DNA from: a virus
DNA length: 20,511 bases
IMG/VR virus record: IMGVR_UViG_3300046648_000212
Location: 1-20,511 of that record
Reading direction: 5' to 3' (one strand)
Below are positions 5,008-18,811 of this stretch, in pieces. Position numbers and translations under genes: made by a program. The notes beneath the pieces are model-generated. The model was not told where the DNA came from. It saw only the letters and a program-made list of their open reading frames with translations, and searched no databases. Position 1 is the first letter of the stretch. The number at the start of each line of letters is the position of its first letter.

Positions 5008-6441
5008 ATGAAAAAGCTGACACAGCGGGAATTGGAAGCGGTGAAACCGAGCCAGGATGGCAGCATCCTGCGCGAAGAAGGTAACCTTTTTGGTCGCGTG
5101 CGTGCGAAAACCGACGGTGCTGTTTCGATATCATTCTACTATCGATACCGTTTCGACGGCAAGTCCAAGGACGTTGCTTGCGGCACCTGGCCGGCTGACA
5201 GTTTGGCTGCAATTCGCGCCAAGCGTGATGATGCTCGGGGGAAAGTTGCCGACGGCACGAACCCCGCCGTCGAAAAGAAGCTGCTGCGCCACGAGCGCCA
5301 GGAGGAAATTGCTCTCAAGCTTGCCGAAATCGAACTGCAGCGCGCCAGCAACCTGACCGTCCAAGACCTGTTCGACGCCTGGATCACCGACGGCGTGCGC
5401 CGCAAGGACGGCAACGCCGCGCTGCAGCGCACCTTCACAGTGGACGTGCTACCCACCATCGGCGCCGTCGCAGTCAAGGACCTGACCGAGCAGCACCTGC
5501 GCGGCGTGCTGCGCGCCCTGGTCGACCGCGGCGTGAACCGCTCGGCCGTGATGCTGCGCGACGAGCTGACGCAGATGTTCCGCTGGGCCCGCAAGCGCCA
5601 GCCCTGGCGCAAGCTGCTGGTGGAAGGCGATCCGATGGACCTGATCGAGATCGACAAGATCGTGGCACCCGACTTCGACATGGAAAACCAGCGCACGCGC
5701 GTGCTGCCCGACACCGAGATCATCGAGCTGCGCGATATCCTCGCCCGCCGCCAGGCCGAGTATGAGGCGGCGCCGAACAAGCGCACCGTGCCGCAGGTCC
5801 TTGAGCCGACCACGCAGCGCGCGGTCTGGATTATGCTCTCGACCATGTGCCGCGTCGGCGAGACGTCGATGGCCAGGTGGGAACACGTCGACCTTAAGGC
5901 CGGCACCTGGTTCATCCCGAAGGCGAACGTGAAGGACAACGTCGGCGACCTGACCGTCTACCTATCCGCGTTCTCGCTGGAGCAGTTCCGCGAGTTACAC
6001 AAGCTGACCGGCCATACGGACTGGTGCTTCCCGGCCCGAAGCGAGGAAAAGCACATCGACGTGAAGGCGATCACCAAGCAGCTGCGCGACCGCCAGGCCA
6101 TGTTCAATAAAAAAAGGGATGGCACTCCGCGCGCGCCGCTGAAGAATCGGGTGAGCGACAACACGCTGGTGCTGGGCGGCGGCAAGAACGGCGCCTGGAC
6201 CTCGCACGACCTGCGCCGCACCGGCGCGACGACGATGCAAAAGCTCGGGATCTCGCTCGACATCATCGACCGCTGCCAGAACCACGTGCTGGCGGGCAGC
6301 AAGGTCCGCCGGCATTACCTGCACCACGACTATGCGGAGGAAAAGCGCGCGGCTTGGGCGGCGCTGGGCCGGCGCATCGAGCAGGTGCTGGCTGGATCAG
6401 CTGGCGCAGAGATCATCGCCTTCCCGCGCGCGTCGGCTTAG
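5008..6441 (+). CDS. int: Tyrosine-type phage integrase (P4-like)
   Basis: A 477-residue site-specific recombinase that would join attP to the host tRNA-Pro gene. Residues ~1-90 form an arm-type DNA-binding domain with the GTWPADSLAAIRAKRDDARGKV signature region; ~115-195 is the SAM-like core-binding domain; ~265-460 is the catalytic domain. Catalytic residues visible: R282 (MCRVGE), H400 and R403 (SHDLRR), H426 in QNHVL in place of the usual LGH/LSH, and nucleophile Y437 in RRHYLHHDY. A lysine in the beta-hairpin (K305 or K309) completes the set. The length is at the upper end for the family. No clear Shine-Dalgarno precedes ATG 5008 (an A/T-rich leader instead), which suggests weak translation. 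It adjoins the attP region and ends overlapping the convergent next gene by 4 bp. Confidence 0.95.
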   Translation: MKKLTQRELEAVKPSQDGSILREEGNLFGRVRAKTDGAVSISFYYRYRFDGKSKDVACGTWPADSLAAIRAKRDDARGKVADGTNPAVEKKLLRHERQEEIALKLAEIELQRASNLTVQDLFDAWITDGVRRKDGNAALQRTFTVDVLPTIGAVAVKDLTEQHLRGVLRALVDRGVNRSAVMLRDELTQMFRWARKRQPWRKLLVEGDPMDLIEIDKIVAPDFDMENQRTRVLPDTEIIELRDILARRQAEYEAAPNKRTVPQVLEPTTQRAVWIMLSTMCRVGETSMARWEHVDLKAGTWFIPKANVKDNVGDLTVYLSAFSLEQFRELHKLTGHTDWCFPARSEEKHIDVKAITKQLRDRQAMFNKKRDGTPRAPLKNRVSDNTLVLGGGKNGAWTSHDLRRTGATTMQKLGISLDIIDRCQNHVLAGSKVRRHYLHHDYAEEKRAAWAALGRRIEQVLAGSAGAEIIAFPRASA

Positions 6442-6773
6442 TCTGGGGCGGCCCCAACTGGCCGCGTGTCGATCTCGCAAAGCCAGGACTGGGCAAAGTC
6501 GACCAGGTCGCCAGCCTCATTGCGTACCCGCTCAAATCCGGACAGCACGAATTTACCGTCGTTCGCCCAGATGATGTGCGGCTCCACCAACTCCAGAGCT
6601 GCGGCACGCATCTTGGCGTGTAGACGCGCCAGCTTGACCGGTCGCCGCAGCCCTTGGTCCGTCACATCCATGATGACTAGCGTGCCCTTGTAGATGGCCG
6701 TACTGCGGTCTCGTAACATCCGCCTTGGGATCTCGACGCCGCGCCGCCGCATAGGGGTGACAATTACTCTCAC
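6438..6773 (-). CDS. Conserved hypothetical protein divergent from SRAP, putatively SOS-regulated
   Basis: A 111-residue protein from a GTG start at 6773, chosen because a GAGAGAG-like ribosome site lies just upstream; ATG at 6752 is the alternative. It is basic at the N-terminus (MRRRGVEIPRRMLRDRS) and has a beta-rich centre (AIYKGTLVIMDVTD) and an alpha-helical LHAKMRAAALELVEPHIIW segment. No membrane segment or enzyme motif is visible. A good minus-strand promoter (TTTACA, 16-bp spacer, TATACT) overlaps a LexA box, so it is probably DNA-damage induced. It converges on the integrase with a 4-bp stop overlap. I do not recognise the family. The shared control with SRAP suggests a role in the SOS-linked DNA damage response or in induction. 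Confidence 0.65.
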   Translation of the reverse strand: MRVIVTPMRRRGVEIPRRMLRDRSTAIYKGTLVIMDVTDQGLRRPVKLARLHAKMRAAALELVEPHIIWANDGKFVLSGFERVRNEAGDLVDFAQSWLCEIDTRPVGAAPD

Positions 6774-6787
6774 AACTCTCTCGCAAT

Positions 6788-6807
6788 TACTGTATATCCG
6801 TACAGTA
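6788..6807. promoter_or_regulatory. LexA (SOS) box
   Basis: TACTGTATATCCGTACAGTA matches the LexA operator CTGT-N8-ACAG perfectly, including the extended TACTG/CAGTA ends. It lies in the 87-bp gap between the divergent 111-aa gene and the SRAP gene. The -10 of the minus-strand promoter overlaps it. Confidence 0.9.
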
Positions 6808-6831
6808 TATCGGTTGACGTTTTATTGTAAA
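6804..6831 (-). promoter_or_regulatory. LexA-overlapped promoter of the 111-aa gene
   Basis: On the minus strand, -35 TTTACA (complement of 6826-6831) and -10 TATACT (complement of 6804-6809) are separated by 16 bp. The -10 shares four bases with the LexA box, so LexA would block this promoter. No equally good plus-strand promoter for SRAP was seen, although a start near the same box is likely. Confidence 0.6.
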
Positions 6832-6860
6832 GTATCAAGACGACAACACGCGGAGGCAAT

Positions 6861-7532
6861 ATGTGCGGACGATTCCACCAGAGCGACATAGAGCGGGCGA
6901 TGGCCGATTTCGGCTGGGTGGATGAATTCGTCAACCGCAGCACTGCCGCCCCTTGCTGGAATGTCGCGCCGACGATGCGCCGGCCGGTGCTGCACGTCGA
7001 GGGCGGCGCGCTGCTGCTGGACGACCTGCACTGGGGCTACCAAGCGGCATGGGCACAGGGAAAAGTGCCGGTGGCGGTCAATGCGAGATTGGAGAAGATC
7101 ACGAACCGCTACTGGGGTAGCCTGCTGACGCGCGGCCGCTGCATCGTGCCGGCGGACGGCTGGTATGAATGGACCGGCGAGAAAGGCGCGAAGCAGCCGT
7201 GGCACATCCATCGCGCGAACGGCGGGGCGCTGTACATGGCCGCCCTCGCCTGCTTCGGCGAGGCGACCGAGAACGCGCCGGCGCACGGCTTCACCATCGT
7301 CACGGCCGACGCCCAGGGCGGCATGGTCGACATCCATGACCGGAGGCCGGTGGTGTTCAGCGCGCCAGACGCGGCTACCTGGCTTGACCCGGCTATCTCC
7401 AGCGAGCAGGCCGCCGAGCTGGCGCGATCGGTGGCGCTGGGGCCGGATAGCTTTGCCTGGTTCATGGTCAACAAGGCGGTAGGGAGCGTGCGCAATCAGG
7501 GCGCACAGCTGGTCGAGCGAGTTTTGACGTAG
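6861..7532 (+). CDS. SOS response-associated peptidase (SRAP; YedK/HMCES type)
   Basis: A 223-residue SRAP protein. After Met removal, Cys2 forms a covalent thiazolidine crosslink with abasic sites in single-stranded DNA, protecting them from error-prone processing. Visible signature: MCGRF at the start (C2), N34 in the CWNVAPT motif, NARLE (N74-E78), GRCIVPADGWYEW with E103, and HDRRPV with H159. The length equals the family standard. GGAGG lies 4 nt before the ATG. A LexA box sits 53 bp upstream, consistent with SOS control. SRAP genes are common in temperate phages of Proteobacteria; in this phage it may guard replicating DNA after induction. Confidence 0.93.
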   Translation: MCGRFHQSDIERAMADFGWVDEFVNRSTAAPCWNVAPTMRRPVLHVEGGALLLDDLHWGYQAAWAQGKVPVAVNARLEKITNRYWGSLLTRGRCIVPADGWYEWTGEKGAKQPWHIHRANGGALYMAALACFGEATENAPAHGFTIVTADAQGGMVDIHDRRPVVFSAPDAATWLDPAISSEQAAELARSVALGPDSFAWFMVNKAVGSVRNQGAQLVERVLT

Positions 7533-7580
7533 ATCAAATTGCTGGCTGGCTGACGTGCCATAGTGGCTCAGGAGGTCACT

Positions 7581-7769
7581 ATGGACGAGGACGTCATTGA
7601 ACGGGTGCCGGCCTGGCTGCAGGCGCGCTACATTGCTGTGGCCGCCGAGCTGGAACGTATGCATGGCGCTGCATTCGCTGATGAGTTTTTGGTGGGCGTG
7701 ATGCAGGCGCACCCGCACTCCGGCTATTTTCTTCGACTAGAACCAGCCATTGACCAAGTATCAACCTAA
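7581..7769 (+). CDS. Small hypothetical protein downstream of SRAP
   Basis: A 62-residue protein starting at ATG 7581 behind an excellent AGGAGGT site (7570-7576); an upstream in-frame GTG at 7563 would place the start before that site and is unlikely. The sequence is acidic and helical (MDEDVIERVPAWLQARYIAVAAELERMHGAAFADEFLVGVMQAHPHSGYF). No known motif, signal or membrane segment is recognised. It is 48 bp after SRAP and may be co-transcribed with it. Function unknown. Confidence 0.6.
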   Translation: MDEDVIERVPAWLQARYIAVAAELERMHGAAFADEFLVGVMQAHPHSGYFLRLEPAIDQVST

Positions 7770-7782
7770 CAGTGTTGCACTA

Positions 7783-7811
7783 CTGCCACCAGTAGCAATA
7801 AAAATTATAAT
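7783..7811 (+). promoter_or_regulatory. Promoter of the HNHP/72-aa cassette
   Basis: CTGCCA (7783-7788), 17-bp spacer and a perfect TATAAT (7806-7811). It lies in a strikingly AT-rich 150-bp stretch (7770-7918) that separates the cassette from the gene before it. An independent promoter is typical of phage moron genes. Confidence 0.45.
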
Positions 7812-7918
7812 ATTTTCATTAAAAAAGGGCTATGATTTGTTGAATGCAGGAACTATATTGAACTTTAAGGTGCCTGCGAACCGACGCATAATATCGATCG
7901 CGAACGAGGTGCGGACCA

Positions 7919-8482
7919 ATGTCGAACAGCCAACCTACATGGGACTTCAATCTATATGATCCGGGTTTCGCTCGACATGCACCAGATACCTCGACGGCTG
8001 CTCGATTGTCAGCAGTTGCATTCGAAATTCGTGTACGCAAAGAATTAATAGAGCACGGGGCATTTTTCCGTTCGGATGGCAATTTAATTTTCGAGAAAAT
8101 GGGGCTAAAAAATTCAATCCCCCTCTCGCCGCTCGAACTCGTCGGGACGGAGAAGAGCCTGTTTACGCACAATCATCCCGACGGTAGCTCGTTCTCCATT
8201 CGCGATGTTGAAACCGCTATCCAACAGGAGTTATGTGAACTTCGTGTGGTGGCGCCAGACTGGCGACACATCATGCGGCCGTACCGAAATCAACACTGGC
8301 CAAGTCGGCCAGCAATCATTGCGGCTTTTCGGAATGAAACGTACAGGGCCTGCACCGAAGTTCATGGCATGATGAAAAGTGGCCAGCTGTCCTACCAATA
8401 TAAGGATGTGGAACTACAACATCAAATCTGGCAGCGCGTCGCACATCAGTTGAAATTTGAATATATCAGGGAGGCATCCTAA
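7919..8482 (+). CDS. HNHP-type JAB/MPN-like putative metallopeptidase, phage cargo
   Basis: A 187-residue protein. The centre holds FTHNHPDGSSFSIRD (H84, H86, S93, D96), preceded by Glu residues (E36, E73, E78) and followed by ELRVVAPDWRHIM. This resembles the zinc-binding JAMM motif (E ... HxH ... SxxD) of JAB/MPN+ isopeptidases, but it has six rather than seven residues between HxH and S. Related HNHP domains are found in phage head-associated and polymorphic-toxin proteins. No signal peptide or membrane segment. The DNA is visibly more AT-rich than its neighbours and has its own promoter, suggesting recent transfer. The next gene starts directly after its stop, so the two form a cassette. 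Enzyme activity is inferred; it could be a non-catalytic fold. Not related in context to the tail JAB domain of protein K. Confidence 0.6.
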   Translation: MSNSQPTWDFNLYDPGFARHAPDTSTAARLSAVAFEIRVRKELIEHGAFFRSDGNLIFEKMGLKNSIPLSPLELVGTEKSLFTHNHPDGSSFSIRDVETAIQQELCELRVVAPDWRHIMRPYRNQHWPSRPAIIAAFRNETYRACTEVHGMMKSGQLSYQYKDVELQHQIWQRVAHQLKFEYIREAS

Positions 8483-8701
8483 ATGGAAACCCAAACGATC
8501 CAGTCCGAAGTCGACGATGTTCTGGCAAGACTTTTGCCCCCCTTGGGTTTTGAGGATCATCTCGTAGTCCTCACGCGCGGCTATTACGTGTGGATGCGGG
8601 CTGAGCAGGTACTCCCCGACGAATCGATTTGCCTATACGATGGCGACTGCCGAGACGTGCTTCTTCCTACGGATGCACGAGTGAAGCATAGATTCCAGTG
8701 A
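8483..8701 (+). CDS. 72-aa partner protein of the HNHP cassette
   Basis: A 72-residue protein whose ATG follows the TAA of the preceding gene immediately, with GGGAGG 8 nt upstream inside that gene. The sequence (METQTIQSEVDDVLARLLPP, then LVVLTRGYYVWM and LYDGDCRDVLLP) suggests a helix followed by a compact beta fold. No recognised family. Strict coupling to the HNHP gene suggests the products act together, for example as partner, inhibitor or adaptor. It ends 7 bp from the stop of the convergent late operon. Confidence 0.6.
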   Translation: METQTIQSEVDDVLARLLPPLGFEDHLVVLTRGYYVWMRAEQVLPDESICLYDGDCRDVLLPTDARVKHRFQ

Positions 8702-8708
8702 GGCACTG

Positions 8709-8963
8709 CTACAGGCACCCCTCAATAGCCGCGCGCAGCAGGGACTCGTACTTCCTGCCGCGCGGCCAGTCCGCCGCAAGTGCCAAGACCTTTTCGCCAG
8801 GGCTGGCACCCGGCTGCAGCCTGTCAAACTCAAACATCGGCGCGGCGGGGACGTCTGCCTCCTTCAAGCACGGCCTGTAGACCGGAATCTCCACGGTCTG
8901 CGTCGCTGGCGGCGCGCTGGCGCACCCGGTCAGCAGCGCGATCATTGGCAGCATCGCCTTCAT
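8709..8963 (-). CDS. Outer-membrane spanin lipoprotein (Rz1-like)
   Basis: An 84-residue lipoprotein: MKAMLPMIALLTGCASAPP has a short signal peptide and a lipobox LLTGC with acylated C14, followed by a Pro-containing mature region (TVEIPVYRPCLKEADVPAAP) and a conserved WPRGRKYESLLRAAIEGC tail. Rz1-type o-spanins sit in the outer membrane and join the inner-membrane Rz to fuse both membranes at the last step of lysis. It overlaps the Rz-like gene by ATGA rather than being nested in it as in lambda. Its position as the last gene of the lysis cassette supports the call. Confidence 0.85.
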   Translation of the reverse strand: MKAMLPMIALLTGCASAPPATQTVEIPVYRPCLKEADVPAAPMFEFDRLQPGASPGEKVLALAADWPRGRKYESLLRAAIEGCL

Positions 8964-9355
8964 CGCACATCCTCCAGCAGCTTGTTCACATAGGGCATGG
9001 CGTCGTCGCAGCTCGTCGCATGCACGCCGGCCAGCTGCTGCAGCGCGCCGTCGAACCGCTTACCCTGCTCCGCCGCTTGGGCCCGCGCCGCGGCGCCGCG
9101 CGCATCCGCCTCGATCTTGGCCTTGGCCAGCGCCTCGGTGGCGCGGTTCTGCTCGCGGATCGCGCTCTGGTAGTCGTCGGCGCGGGCGTTCGCCGCCGTC
9201 AGGTCGACCTGGGCCTGCTTCAGTTCGTGCTTGGTCAGCCACAGGGCCGTGCCGCCGGCCACGCCCACCACAAGGAGCAGGCCGGCCAGCGCGGCTGTGG
9301 CCACCTTCCAGGCCTGCCCGGTGGCGGTGCCGACGAGCGTGCCGAGCGCGCTCAC
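8960..9355 (-). CDS. Inner-membrane spanin (Rz-like)
   Basis: A 131-residue protein with an N-terminal membrane segment at ~20-40 (AALAGLLLVVGVAGGTALWL) and a long Ala/Gln/Glu-rich periplasmic coiled coil at ~42-108, ending SCDDAMPYVNKLLEDVR. This is the usual Rz/i-spanin architecture. The start is GTG at 9355, overlapping the endolysin stop as GTGA; no other early Met exists and the ribosome site is weak, so translation is probably coupled. It works with the downstream Rz1-like lipoprotein to disrupt the outer membrane. Confidence 0.85.
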   Translation of the reverse strand: MSALGTLVGTATGQAWKVATAALAGLLLVVGVAGGTALWLTKHELKQAQVDLTAANARADDYQSAIREQNRATEALAKAKIEADARGAAARAQAAEQGKRFDGALQQLAGVHATSCDDAMPYVNKLLEDVR

Positions 9356-9867
9356 GCAAGCACCCGCTGCGCCACCGCGAACAGCGCCAGACGGTCGTCA
9401 AGGCCATTGGTGCCGCCGTTCACACGCCGCGTCACCTTCACCTGGTCACCGGCATCCGCCAGCTCGTTCAGCCCATGCGTCTTCCAGAACCAACCAGCCG
9501 AGCGACACGCGCTGTCCGGCAGTTCAAGCAGTTGCGGATGCTCGAGCAGGTCCAGCCCCAGGGCGGCGCCGCACGCGGCGTAGTTCGCGCGGCCGGTTAT
9601 CTGGATCAGGCCGCGCCCCTTGTAACGCCGGCCATCACCCGGCCAGGTGTTGCCCAAGTCCTTGCGGCCCTCGTATGCGTCGCCGCTGGCCAATTCGAGC
9701 GTGTACCGTAGTTGCGCCGACTCGTGGCCGACCTGGGCGATGAACGACGCTTGGCGCGCCGGCGTGTCGATGTCGAATTCGGCCATGGCGGCCGTCAGCG
9801 GTGCCAGGAACACGTCAACGCGGCCGCGCGCCAGTGGCATGATGGATAGCAGTTGCGCTGCGTTCAT
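9352..9867 (-). CDS. Endolysin, GH19 chitinase-like muramidase
   Basis: A 171-residue endolysin starting at ATG 9867, which overlaps the stop of the small upstream gene as ATGA; a longer frame to 10017 only shadows that gene. The GH19 pattern is clear: ASFIAQVGHES with the first catalytic Glu E49, TLE (E58), AYEGRKDLGNTWPGDGRRYKGRGLIQITGRANY (64-96) and NGGTNGLDDR near the C-terminus. Phage GH19 enzymes cleave the peptidoglycan glycan strand. No signal peptide or SAR segment is present, so export depends on the holin. Confidence 0.93.
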   Translation of the reverse strand: MNAAQLLSIMPLARGRVDVFLAPLTAAMAEFDIDTPARQASFIAQVGHESAQLRYTLELASGDAYEGRKDLGNTWPGDGRRYKGRGLIQITGRANYAACGAALGLDLLEHPQLLELPDSACRSAGWFWKTHGLNELADAGDQVKVTRRVNGGTNGLDDRLALFAVAQRVLA

Positions 9868-16705: not shown

Positions 16706-17361
16706 AGGTCCACCTGGCCGTAGTGCCCGCGCCCGGTGTAAGGACTCGTCGGCGCGCTGCGCACCGGCGCGACGAATCTCTGCTCAACCGACATACCGGC
16801 CGACACGACTTGTGAGCCGACGATCATCCGGCCATAGCCGACTGGCACCGGATTGCCCTGCGCGATCGTGTTGACTGGGCCATTGAAAGCATACGAAGGC
16901 TCGCTGCCTGGCTGTTCCTTGGGCGATGCCGTGCTCGGCGCCGACATCATCATCTGCGAAATGCCGCCGATAATCATGCTTGTGCCGAAGCTCAGCGCCA
17001 TCGTGCCGCCCGTGCCGGCGACGAGCCCGCCAGCCGCAGAGTACGAGGCGCCGCCCGTATAGAATGCCGCAACAATAATCAGAATGCCGACTATTACCTG
17101 GCCCAGTCCATTCTTGGCGCCAGAAACTACCGGCACAATTTTGATAGGTGCAGTGCCGCTCTGGAATGTCAGATCGTCCATGCAGATTTGGCCCTTTCCC
17201 ACGAAGATGCGATAGCCGGGTTTGTGGCCGGCAATCGCTGCATCGAAGCCGCGAAGGTTGGCGCATAGCGCGCGCACCGCCTCCGCGGGGCTGGCCACAT
17301 CGAGCGAGAACACCTTGCCGAATTGCTTGGCCAGGTGCCCGTACAGCCTCACTTCACGCAT
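16702..17361 (-). CDS. I: Tail assembly protein I
   Basis: A 219-residue protein with start ATG 17361, overlapping the end of the K-like gene by 13 nt; the longer frame to 17418 would run deep into K. Residues 1-75 are a beta-grasp-like domain (MREVRLYGHLAKQFG ... YRIFVGKGQI), residues ~85-140 are Gly/Ala-rich and hydrophobic, and 159-183 contain FNGPVNTIAQGNPVPVGYG, the signature of lambda gpI-like proteins. gpI is needed to start tail-tip assembly with J, H and others. Position between K and J is canonical. Confidence 0.92.
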   Translation of the reverse strand: MREVRLYGHLAKQFGKVFSLDVASPAEAVRALCANLRGFDAAIAGHKPGYRIFVGKGQICMDDLTFQSGTAPIKIVPVVSGAKNGLGQVIVGILIIVAAFYTGGASYSAAGGLVAGTGGTMALSFGTSMIIGGISQMMMSAPSTASPKEQPGSEPSYAFNGPVNTIAQGNPVPVGYGRMIVGSQVVSAGMSVEQRFVAPVRSAPTSPYTGRGHYGQVDL

Positions 17362-18059
17362 AGCAAATCCTTGTGCCGAATAATTTTCACGGTGCACTTC
17401 TCCCAGAACCCGCCCCACACGTCGACGCTCGACAGGCGATGCTCCAGGTGCTGCATAATTTTTCCGTCGCCGACATAGACGGCGCCATGGTTCGGCGTGC
17501 TCGCCCCGATCTGCATCAGCAGCACGTCGTGCAGCGCGATCTGGTCCACCTGGACGAAACCGGCCTCCTCGTAGTGCTGCAGGTACATGCTCCCGCCCGT
17601 CTCCCAGAACCGCTCCGGGTGCGGGAAGTCCTTGAGCGTGATGCCGAGCGTGCGCTGGTAGTAGTCCTGAATCAGCGTGTAGCAGTCGAGCACCGTGTAC
17701 GAATAGACCCGGCCCACCAGCGGCGCGACATAGCCGCTCGGAGCAAATTCATGGATGGCACCCGTCGGCCAATTGACGATCAGCCACGGCAGGCCGGACG
17801 CTTCGCAGCCGACCAGGTCGGCAGCGCTGGGTAATGGCGCCACGTTCGGGTGCGAGTGAACGATGCAGGTGATTTCACCCTCATCCTCGGCGCCGGCGTA
17901 GTCCTCCGGGTGAATCGAGAAATGATCGTCGGCCAGCGCGGTGTTGCGGCATGGGTAGTAGCGCTCACGACCGCGGCGCACCACCACGACACCGCACGAC
18001 TCGCGCGGATACTCGGCCTGCGCGTGGTCGCGGATCGCCTGCAGGGTTGATTCATCCAT
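17349..18059 (-). CDS. K: Tail tip protein K (JAB + NlpC/P60 peptidase)
   Basis: A 236-residue protein starting at ATG 18059 (MDESTLQAIRDHAQ); an upstream extension to 18305 would overlap protein L and run through a terminator hairpin. Domain 1 is a JAMM/JAB module: E20 in RESCG, HSHPNVAPLPSAAD with H68, H70, S78, D81, the canonical HxH-x7-SxxD spacing. Domain 2 is NlpC/P60: C126 (TVLDCYTLI) and H191 (PNHGAVYVG). The lambda gpK homologue is a tail-tip peptidoglycan hydrolase helping DNA entry. A strong terminator lies 12 bp before the start, an unusual position; the ribosome site is weak (GGGCG). Confidence 0.92.
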   Translation of the reverse strand: MDESTLQAIRDHAQAEYPRESCGVVVVRRGRERYYPCRNTALADDHFSIHPEDYAGAEDEGEITCIVHSHPNVAPLPSAADLVGCEASGLPWLIVNWPTGAIHEFAPSGYVAPLVGRVYSYTVLDCYTLIQDYYQRTLGITLKDFPHPERFWETGGSMYLQHYEEAGFVQVDQIALHDVLLMQIGASTPNHGAVYVGDGKIMQHLEHRLSSVDVWGGFWEKCTVKIIRHKDLLCVK

Positions 18060-18071
18060 CGATCGCCCAAT

Positions 18072-18093
18072 AAAAAACCGCCCGAAGGCGGTT
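18072..18093 (-). terminator. Rho-independent terminator between L and K
   Basis: On the minus strand: AACCGCC, TTCG loop, GGCGGTT followed by six T in total (complement of 18072-18077). The stem is 7 bp. It lies between the stop of L (18113) and the start of K (18059), inside the otherwise continuous tail operon. Confidence 0.8.
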
Positions 18094-18112
18094 GTGTTTG
18101 TCGAAATGCTGG

Positions 18113-18811
18113 TCACCGGACTAGGCCGACGCCCGGGAAGCCACCATAGGGCAGGACCCCGTTCGCGCCGAAGCGCAGCTTGCAGCCATTCAAGCGTTTG
18201 CTGCATTTGTCGAGGCCCGCGTTTGATGTCGGGACATCCATTGCATCCGCGACCGGGCCGCCGGCATACCCGCACTCGGACGAGCGGTACACCCATGCGC
18301 AGCAATTCTGGATGACCTGGCGGCGCGGCAGCATCACGCCCTGGATATCAAAGGCGCTAGCCAGTTCCCATTCGATCAGCGTCGGCGTCTCATTCGACTT
18401 CCGATCGACATAGAACACGTCATCCGGGAAATGCTGGTTCGGATCCGCGGTCGGGTTGCCGGCTGAAAAATTGACGGCATCGAGAAAGCGCGCGTACGTG
18501 CGTCGACGCGTCACCTTGCAACCGAGGTAGTACGAGCTGGCGCGCGCCGCGCCGGACAGCAGCCCCTGCGTGTTGGACGCCTGCAAAACGGGCCGTGGCA
18601 ACGTTCCGGAGCTGCGCCGATCGAACCCTGTCGCCTTGATCGGGAAGCGCGTGTAGACCTGGCCCTGCCACGTCACATCGGTGTTGAGCTCGTTCGTGCC
18701 GGCGTGAAAGCGCAGAACGCCGCCGGCGTACTTGGTCAGGTCCAACTCGTAAAGTTCAACTAGCGCCGTGGGCGCGAGCAGTTGGACTTCCGTTGCAATG
18801 GTGTTCGACAT
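18113..18811 (-). CDS. L: Tail tip protein L (Fe-S type)
   Basis: A 232-residue protein beginning at ATG 18811 (MSNTIATEVQLL), 1 nt after the stop of M. The N-terminal half (VELYELDLTKYAGGVLRFHAGTN ... WQGQVYTRFPI) matches the lambda gpL family. The C-terminal domain keeps cysteines C171, C180, C203 and C210 with spacings 9, 23 and 7, the same as those reported for the [4Fe-4S] cluster of lambda gpL; an extra C170 adjoins. gpL forms part of the tail tip below J. The sequence CGYAGGPV after C180 is also typical. Long frame to 18862 is less likely. Confidence 0.93.
   Translation of the reverse strand: MSNTIATEVQLLAPTALVELYELDLTKYAGGVLRFHAGTNELNTDVTWQGQVYTRFPIKATGFDRRSSGTLPRPVLQASNTQGLLSGAARASSYYLGCKVTRRRTYARFLDAVNFSAGNPTADPNQHFPDDVFYVDRKSNETPTLIEWELASAFDIQGVMLPRRQVIQNCCAWVYRSSECGYAGGPVADAMDVPTSNAGLDKCSKRLNGCKLRFGANGVLPYGGFPGVGLVR

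What the first reader, a model, noticed from the sequence alone, without database searches (positions are those of the whole stretch)
7770..8701. AT-rich two-gene cargo cassette with an HNHP/JAB-like protein
Between SRAP and the late operon lies a promoter-bearing, AT-richer unit: a 187-aa HNHP protein and a directly coupled 72-aa protein. The position, own promoter and base composition fit a moron. A JAB-like isopeptidase with a small partner could counter ubiquitin-like or other peptide-bond-based host defences, or act as an effector pair. This is the best candidate for an undescribed system in the window.
Basis: inference. Interest (0 to 1): 0.65.

Follow-up and report, generated by a model that had tools for sequence, protein, structure and literature searches.

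The report
Orphan phage-head effector with small partner
A prophage carries, at a site where related phages swap accessory genes, a two-gene cassette that was once the tail end of a phage head protein: a zinc-enzyme domain that looks like an injected effector, followed at once by the small gene that in similar systems makes the protective immunity protein.

Summary
The two genes are real. ORF A (7919-8482, 187 aa) and ORF B (8483-8701, 72 aa) abut stop-to-start. Both are under purifying selection against a sister phage (dN/dS 0.066 and 0.059). A has an intact JAMM/JAB site (E45, H84, H86, S93, D96) and a confident JAB-fold model (pLDDT 92.5). It matches no Pfam, NCBIfam, PHROG or PADLOC family.

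The key result: A is homologous over its whole length (35-40%) to the C-terminal ~185 residues of MuF phage-head proteins. In those phages a 56-aa homologue of B also follows at zero gap (L058/L059, L071-L073). The sister phage L003 has an HK97-type head and no MuF, so there the pair stands alone. In L076 the flanking genes align to within 4 bp of B's stop, yet A, B and the leader are replaced by unrelated AT-rich DNA. This is therefore a swappable cargo (moron) site.

Best reading: an orphan MuF effector-immunity cassette, with A as metal-dependent effector/toxin and B as its neutraliser. Origin from a MuF protein is well shown. The toxin and immunity roles are inferred from studied MuF toxins (Apk2/IapK, Bxa/Bsi). 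A ubiquitin-like-defence target is possible but unsupported. Substrate and promoter activity are untested.

The parts
7770..7918 (+). AT-rich leader (GC 0.40) with a promoter-like site and a GAGGTG ribosome-binding-type sequence before ORF A
   Evidence: GC; CTGCCA-17-TATAAT at 7783-7811; 36-nt stretch around TATGAT/TTGAAT shared with L004
7919..8482 (+). ORF A: 187-aa stand-alone JAMM/JAB-fold protein, homologous to the C-terminal domain of MuF phage-head proteins
   Evidence: invariant E45, H84, H86, D96; S93 near-invariant; pLDDT 92.5; JAB fold; phage minor capsid proteins; MuF fusions
7940..8020 (+). Linker of ORF A (TWDFNLYD...PDTSTAAR), the same as the linker joining the MuF and JAB domains in L059/L071-L073/L014; marks the module's 5' border
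   Evidence: alignments; sequences
8164..8206 (+). THNHPDGSSFSIRD: zinc-site motif H84-N-H86-P...S93-x-x-D96
8483..8701 (+). ORF B: 72-aa acidic protein (pI 4.6), start codon directly after A's stop; candidate immunity protein
   Evidence: homologues directly behind MuF-JAB genes in L058/L059 and L071-L073

Best explanation
The unit is an orphan MuF effector-immunity cassette. The C-terminal effector domain of a MuF phage-head protein, with its linker and with the small gene that follows it, has become a free-standing two-gene operon at a cargo (moron) site of a temperate phage that has an HK97-type head and no MuF protein of its own. A is a JAMM-fold, metal-dependent hydrolase that acts on a host molecule (substrate unknown). 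B is translated from the same message, binds A and keeps it harmless in the lysogen. The likely benefit to the prophage is protection of its host from incoming phages that inject the related MuF-JAB effector, addiction-like retention, or release of A's activity when B is lost. Shown: the genes, selection, co-occurrence, MuF origin, JAB fold, intact site, site swapping. Inferred: zinc binding, toxicity, neutralisation by B, benefit.
For:: in five contigs (L058/L059, L071, L072, L073) A's homologue is the C-terminus of a 533-537-aa MuF protein and a 56-aa homologue of B (46%) starts directly after its stop, the same zero-gap junction as here. PF04233 lies in the same ORF as the JAB domain in 15 relatives above cut-off and 3 below; window, L003 and L004 (100/99) sit inside a 99/99 clade with five MuF fusions. 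L015 is a split form, MuF gene then JAB gene then small gene. L003's phage has TerS, TerL, portal, protease-like gene and major head protein of HK97 type, and no PF04233; in L076 window 5605-7501 (88%) and 8706-9356 (85%) are present but 7502-8705 is replaced by unrelated AT-rich DNA; both genes under purifying selection; a small same-strand ORF starts within -22 to +5 nt of the JAB gene's end in 21 of 33 evaluable loci. Precedent: MuF toxins Apk2 and Bxa are toxic and are neutralised by small downstream-encoded proteins (PMC12226406, PMC11699363); 89% of MuF toxin genes have such a small ORF against 25% of short MuF genes (PMC5576092).
Against: No toxicity or binding data. B's model is poor (pLDDT 62.6) and no complex could be modelled. 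L014 and L015, in the same clade, have small downstream genes not clearly homologous to B (16-19%). In 12 of 33 loci no small coupled gene follows, so a neutraliser is not always needed, or the domain is not always toxic. Purifying selection on both genes fits any coupled function.
Confidence: 0.6

Rival explanations
1. Counter-defence isopeptidase: A, free in the lysogen or early in infection, cuts ubiquitin-like or Cap2-type conjugates made by host defences (type II CBASS, Bil/Bub operons), and B is a regulator or cofactor.
For: JAB fold with intact catalytic residues. Cap3-CD-NTase (9ild, Z 6.2) and BubCD (9eae, Z 5.3) are among the fold matches. Reversible conjugation regulates CBASS (PMC11153139, PMC10097602).
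Against: RadC is the best Foldseek match and equals Cap3 by Z. No PADLOC hit of weight. The HNHP motif is of the RadC type; JABs of polymorphic toxins were argued to lack the ubiquitin-tail groove (PMC3482391). A coupled acidic partner is not explained.
Confidence: 0.12
2. Virion or head-assembly function: the JAB domain is a head-processing protease (or a structural part) and B is its assembly partner; the stand-alone pair still acts in morphogenesis.
For: Most relatives are parts of MuF head proteins in head operons. Some PHROG labels of this group read 'head maturation protease'. Cyanophage-like versions are stand-alone in head operons.
Against: In the window group the pair lies between SRAP and the lysis genes, not in the head operon. 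The phage has its own HK97-type head set including a protease-like gene. A near relative, L076, lacks the pair.
Confidence: 0.12
3. Plain toxin-antitoxin or abortive-infection module acting against other phages, with no link to injected MuF effectors today.
For: Two-gene operon, own AT-rich leader, moron site, small acidic second gene.
Against: Gene order is toxin first; no regulator-like domain in B; origin is from a MuF gene. This differs from the best explanation mainly in benefit, not in biochemistry.
Confidence: 0.12

Closest known systems
MuF polymorphic toxins of temperate phages (Jamet 2017, PMC5576092; Apk2/IapK, PMC12226406; Bxa/Bsi, PMC11699363)
   Same: A and B are homologues of the C-terminal domain and the following small gene of MuF genes; same order and coupling
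   Different: No MuF domain here, not in the head operon; catalytic domain is JAMM-fold, not kinase-like or ADP-ribosyltransferase; toxicity untested
[quoted passage not shown]
   Same: JAB domain proposed as toxin, E, HxH, S, D residues, linked small immunity gene
   Different: No significant hit to DUF4329 for A (one relative at E 0.0085); linked genes are not Imm65 or Imm-NTF2 by any test made here
RadC-type JAB proteins
   Same: HNHP motif and JAB fold; best Foldseek match 2qlc (E 4e-3)
   Different: No RadC Pfam hit; about 16% identity; shorter spacing from second His to Ser (6 residues)
CBASS Cap3 and other JAMM isopeptidases (PfJAMM1, AMSH, Rpn11)
   Same: Fold and zinc-site residues
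   Different: No sequence similarity, no E1/E2 or ubiquitin-like gene beside it, HNH in place of HSH/HTH

Membership tests
MuF polymorphic toxin system | N-terminal MuF (PF04233) domain in the same protein | tested here: not met
   A is 187 aa, no PF04233; none in sister record of L003. It is a derivative of the family, not a full member
MuF polymorphic toxin system | C-terminal domain homologous to that of MuF proteins | tested here: met
MuF polymorphic toxin system | small ORF coded directly downstream | tested here: met
   B at zero gap, homologous to the small ORF behind MuF-JAB genes
MuF polymorphic toxin system | toxic C-terminal domain neutralised by the small protein | not testable with these tools
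   needs expression and binding assays
JAMM/JAB (MPN+) metalloenzyme | E-Xn-H-[ST]-H-X7-S-X2-D motif | tested here: inconclusive
   E45, H84, H86, S93, D96 conserved, but N85 between the histidines and 6, not 7, residues before S93; canonical motif as in PMC300881
JAMM/JAB (MPN+) metalloenzyme | JAB/MPN fold | tested here: met
   model pLDDT 92.5; nearly all top structural matches are JAB/MPN proteins, Z up to 6.6, rmsd 3.6 over 106 residues; Z alone is middling, the consistency is the argument
JAMM/JAB (MPN+) metalloenzyme | zinc-dependent hydrolase activity | not testable with these tools
   biochemistry needed
Tox-JAB-2 (DUF4329) / Prok-JAB / RadC Pfam families | score above the curated cut-off | tested here: not met
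   no hit for A at E<=1; of 31 relatives only one weak DUF4329 match
Known anti-phage defence protein (PADLOC) | match to a PADLOC model | tested here: not met
   none for A or B; one relative, PDC-S26 at E 0.005
Phage moron (cargo gene) | present in some and absent in other close relatives at one site between conserved genes, with deviating base composition | tested here: met
   window, L003 and L076 differ at this site between SRAP and the lysis genes
Phage moron (cargo gene) | own promoter and terminator, expression in the lysogen | tested here: inconclusive
   promoter-like site only; no convincing terminator behind B

The most novel reading that the evidence does not exclude
A is a phage-borne deconjugase that strips ubiquitin-like or cGAS conjugates from host defence proteins, used both as an injected MuF effector and, in this phage, as a prophage-expressed cargo gene, with B as its built-in inhibitor.
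Probability: 0.08. Interest if true: 0.85.

Novelty: new variant of a known kind. Interest (0 to 1): 0.5.

Why it matters
JAB domains have been proposed as toxins of polymorphic toxin systems, with the cited authors favouring nuclease over peptidase activity. The papers read here report no experimental test of one. This cassette is a minimal natural pair (187 + 72 aa) of that kind, free of the large head protein, so toxicity, substrate and neutralisation can be tested directly. It also shows a MuF effector module leaving the virion gene and becoming prophage cargo with its partner gene, which connects phage-injected effectors to prophage-borne toxin-immunity and superinfection-defence genes.

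Tried and rejected
Family scans of A and B against Pfam, PHROGs, NCBIfam and PADLOC gave nothing significant. A profile of 31 relatives found no PDB sequence. B's structure prediction was too weak for a fold search (pLDDT 62.6), so none was run. A complex of A and B could not be predicted with the tools left. A duplication of the phage's own tail-protein JAB (17349-18305) was rejected: no meaningful BLASTP match. A split gene of the phage's own MuF protein was rejected: the L003 record holds a full HK97-type head set and no PF04233, though the window itself does not cover the head genes. Papers naming an orphan MuF toxin pair: none found. Supplementary tables of PMC5576092, which may list JAB among the 20% metallopeptidase MuF toxins, could not be opened.

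Full report
What is there. ORF A (7919-8482, + strand, 187 aa) and ORF B (8483-8701, 72 aa) abut, with B's ATG directly after A's TAA. The unit lies between a SRAP gene (6861-7532, PF02586 E 2e-45) with a 68-aa ORF behind it, and the convergent lysis genes (Rz1-like, Rz-like spanin, endolysin). GC is 0.40 in the leader, 0.49 in A and 0.54 in B, against 0.61 for the window. A promoter-like site stands at 7783-7811, but a consensus match is not evidence of activity.

Both genes are real. Against the sister phage contig L003 (93% protein identity for each), A shows 43 synonymous and 13 nonsynonymous changes (dN/dS 0.066) and B 22 and 6 (0.059). B's independent searches found only contigs in which A's homologue stands directly upstream.

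What A is. A has no hit in Pfam, PHROGs, NCBIfam or PADLOC. Aligned with its relatives, E45, H84, N85, H86, P87 and D96 are invariant and S93 nearly so. This is a JAMM-type zinc site, with Asn between the histidines and a spacing of 6 rather than 7. The AlphaFold2 model is confident (pLDDT 92.5, pTM 0.87). PDB matches are almost all JAB/MPN proteins: PfJAMM1 Z 6.6, AMSH 6.3, Cap3 6.2, RadC 6.2, with RadC first by Foldseek. Among viral models the top named hits are phage minor capsid proteins. Each Z value is middling; the consistency of the list and the conserved site carry the argument.

Where it comes from. In most relatives this domain is the C-terminal part of a larger protein. PF04233 (MuF) lies in the same ORF in 15 relatives above the curated cut-off and in 3 more below it. 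In L058/L059, L071, L072 and L073 a 533-537-aa MuF protein ends in a homologue of the whole of A, including the linker 'F.vYD...PDTSTPAR', and is followed at zero gap by a 56-aa homologue of B. In L015 the MuF gene and the JAB gene are separate neighbours, followed by a small gene. In the tree, window, L003 and L004 form a 100/99 group inside a 99/99 clade with the five MuF fusions and L015. The stand-alone pair therefore derives from the 3' end of a MuF gene with its follower gene, or at least shares that module. The direction (fusion first) is inferred from the predominance of fusions, not from a rooted tree.

Why it is cargo. L003's record holds small and large terminase, portal and major head protein hits, plus a 223-aa gene at the prohead-protease position, and no PF04233. 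So a phage of this kind has an HK97-type head and no MuF. In L076 the integrase 3' part, the 111-aa gene and SRAP (window 5605-7501, 88%) and the lysis genes (8706-9356, 85%) are conserved. The DNA between them, containing A, B and the leader, is replaced by unrelated DNA of about 50% GC with a 153-aa membrane-type ORF. In L003 a further 1.5 kb stands between SRAP and the pair where the window has about 90 bp. The site is thus a swap site, and the right border of the cassette falls 4 bp after B's stop.

How it most likely works. MuF toxins are thought to be carried in the head and injected. Two that were studied (Apk2, Bxa) are toxic in bacteria and are neutralised by proteins encoded directly downstream; IapK occludes the active site and Bsi blocks activity by binding (PMC12226406, PMC11699363). 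Small ORFs follow 89% of MuF toxin genes and 25% of short MuF genes (PMC5576092). Here a small same-strand ORF follows in 21 of 33 evaluable JAB loci (mechanical ORF calls). By this precedent A is the effector and B its immunity protein. B is acidic (pI 4.6) and short, as immunity proteins often are. Detached from MuF, A has no obvious route into the virion. The pair may be kept because B protects the lysogen from related injected effectors, or because loss of B would expose the cell to A. None of these functional steps is shown here.

Peptidase or nuclease. JABs of polymorphic toxins were argued to be nucleases because they lack the ubiquitin-tail groove (PMC3482391). The fold search does not separate these options.

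Novelty. A JAB domain as C-terminal effector of MuF proteins with a coupled partner, and its orphan form as prophage cargo, was not found in the texts read ('JAB' does not occur in the main text of PMC5576092). It is filed as a new variant of a known kind.

Noticed in passing
window 17349-18305 (-): Tail assembly protein K-like: Prok-JAB (4.9e-18) plus NlpC/P60. A second JAB in the same phage, unrelated by BLASTP to ORF A.
   Followed up: yes
L001 5512-5796, L016, L017, L018, L019, L046, L048, L052 downstream ORFs: A different small protein with CxxC...C.AFPdGIP..iW.Ge.dH..PypGDnGiqF (zinc-ribbon-like) follows many other MuF-JAB genes. In MT837107 (L009) it is convergent. It may be the partner of other JAB subclades; L001's copy hits phrog_33375, unknown function.
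   Followed up: partly
L010, L020, L025, L026, L034: Cyanophage-type stand-alone JAB proteins (~225 aa) with an N-terminal CGDACIP cysteine stretch, in L010 within a head operon, followed by a 240-450-aa gene.
   Followed up: partly
L003 3357-4841: About 1.5 kb extra DNA between SRAP and the cassette, with a 191-aa phasin-like, Ala/Lys-rich gene on the minus strand.
   Followed up: no
L076 5530-6598: Alternative AT-rich cargo at the same site: 153-aa membrane-type ORF (6022-6483 +) and an 85-aa ORF.
   Followed up: no
L012 3866-4438: Stand-alone JAB relative (190 aa) on a Hymenobacter plasmid beside a Fic gene and conjugation genes.
   Followed up: no
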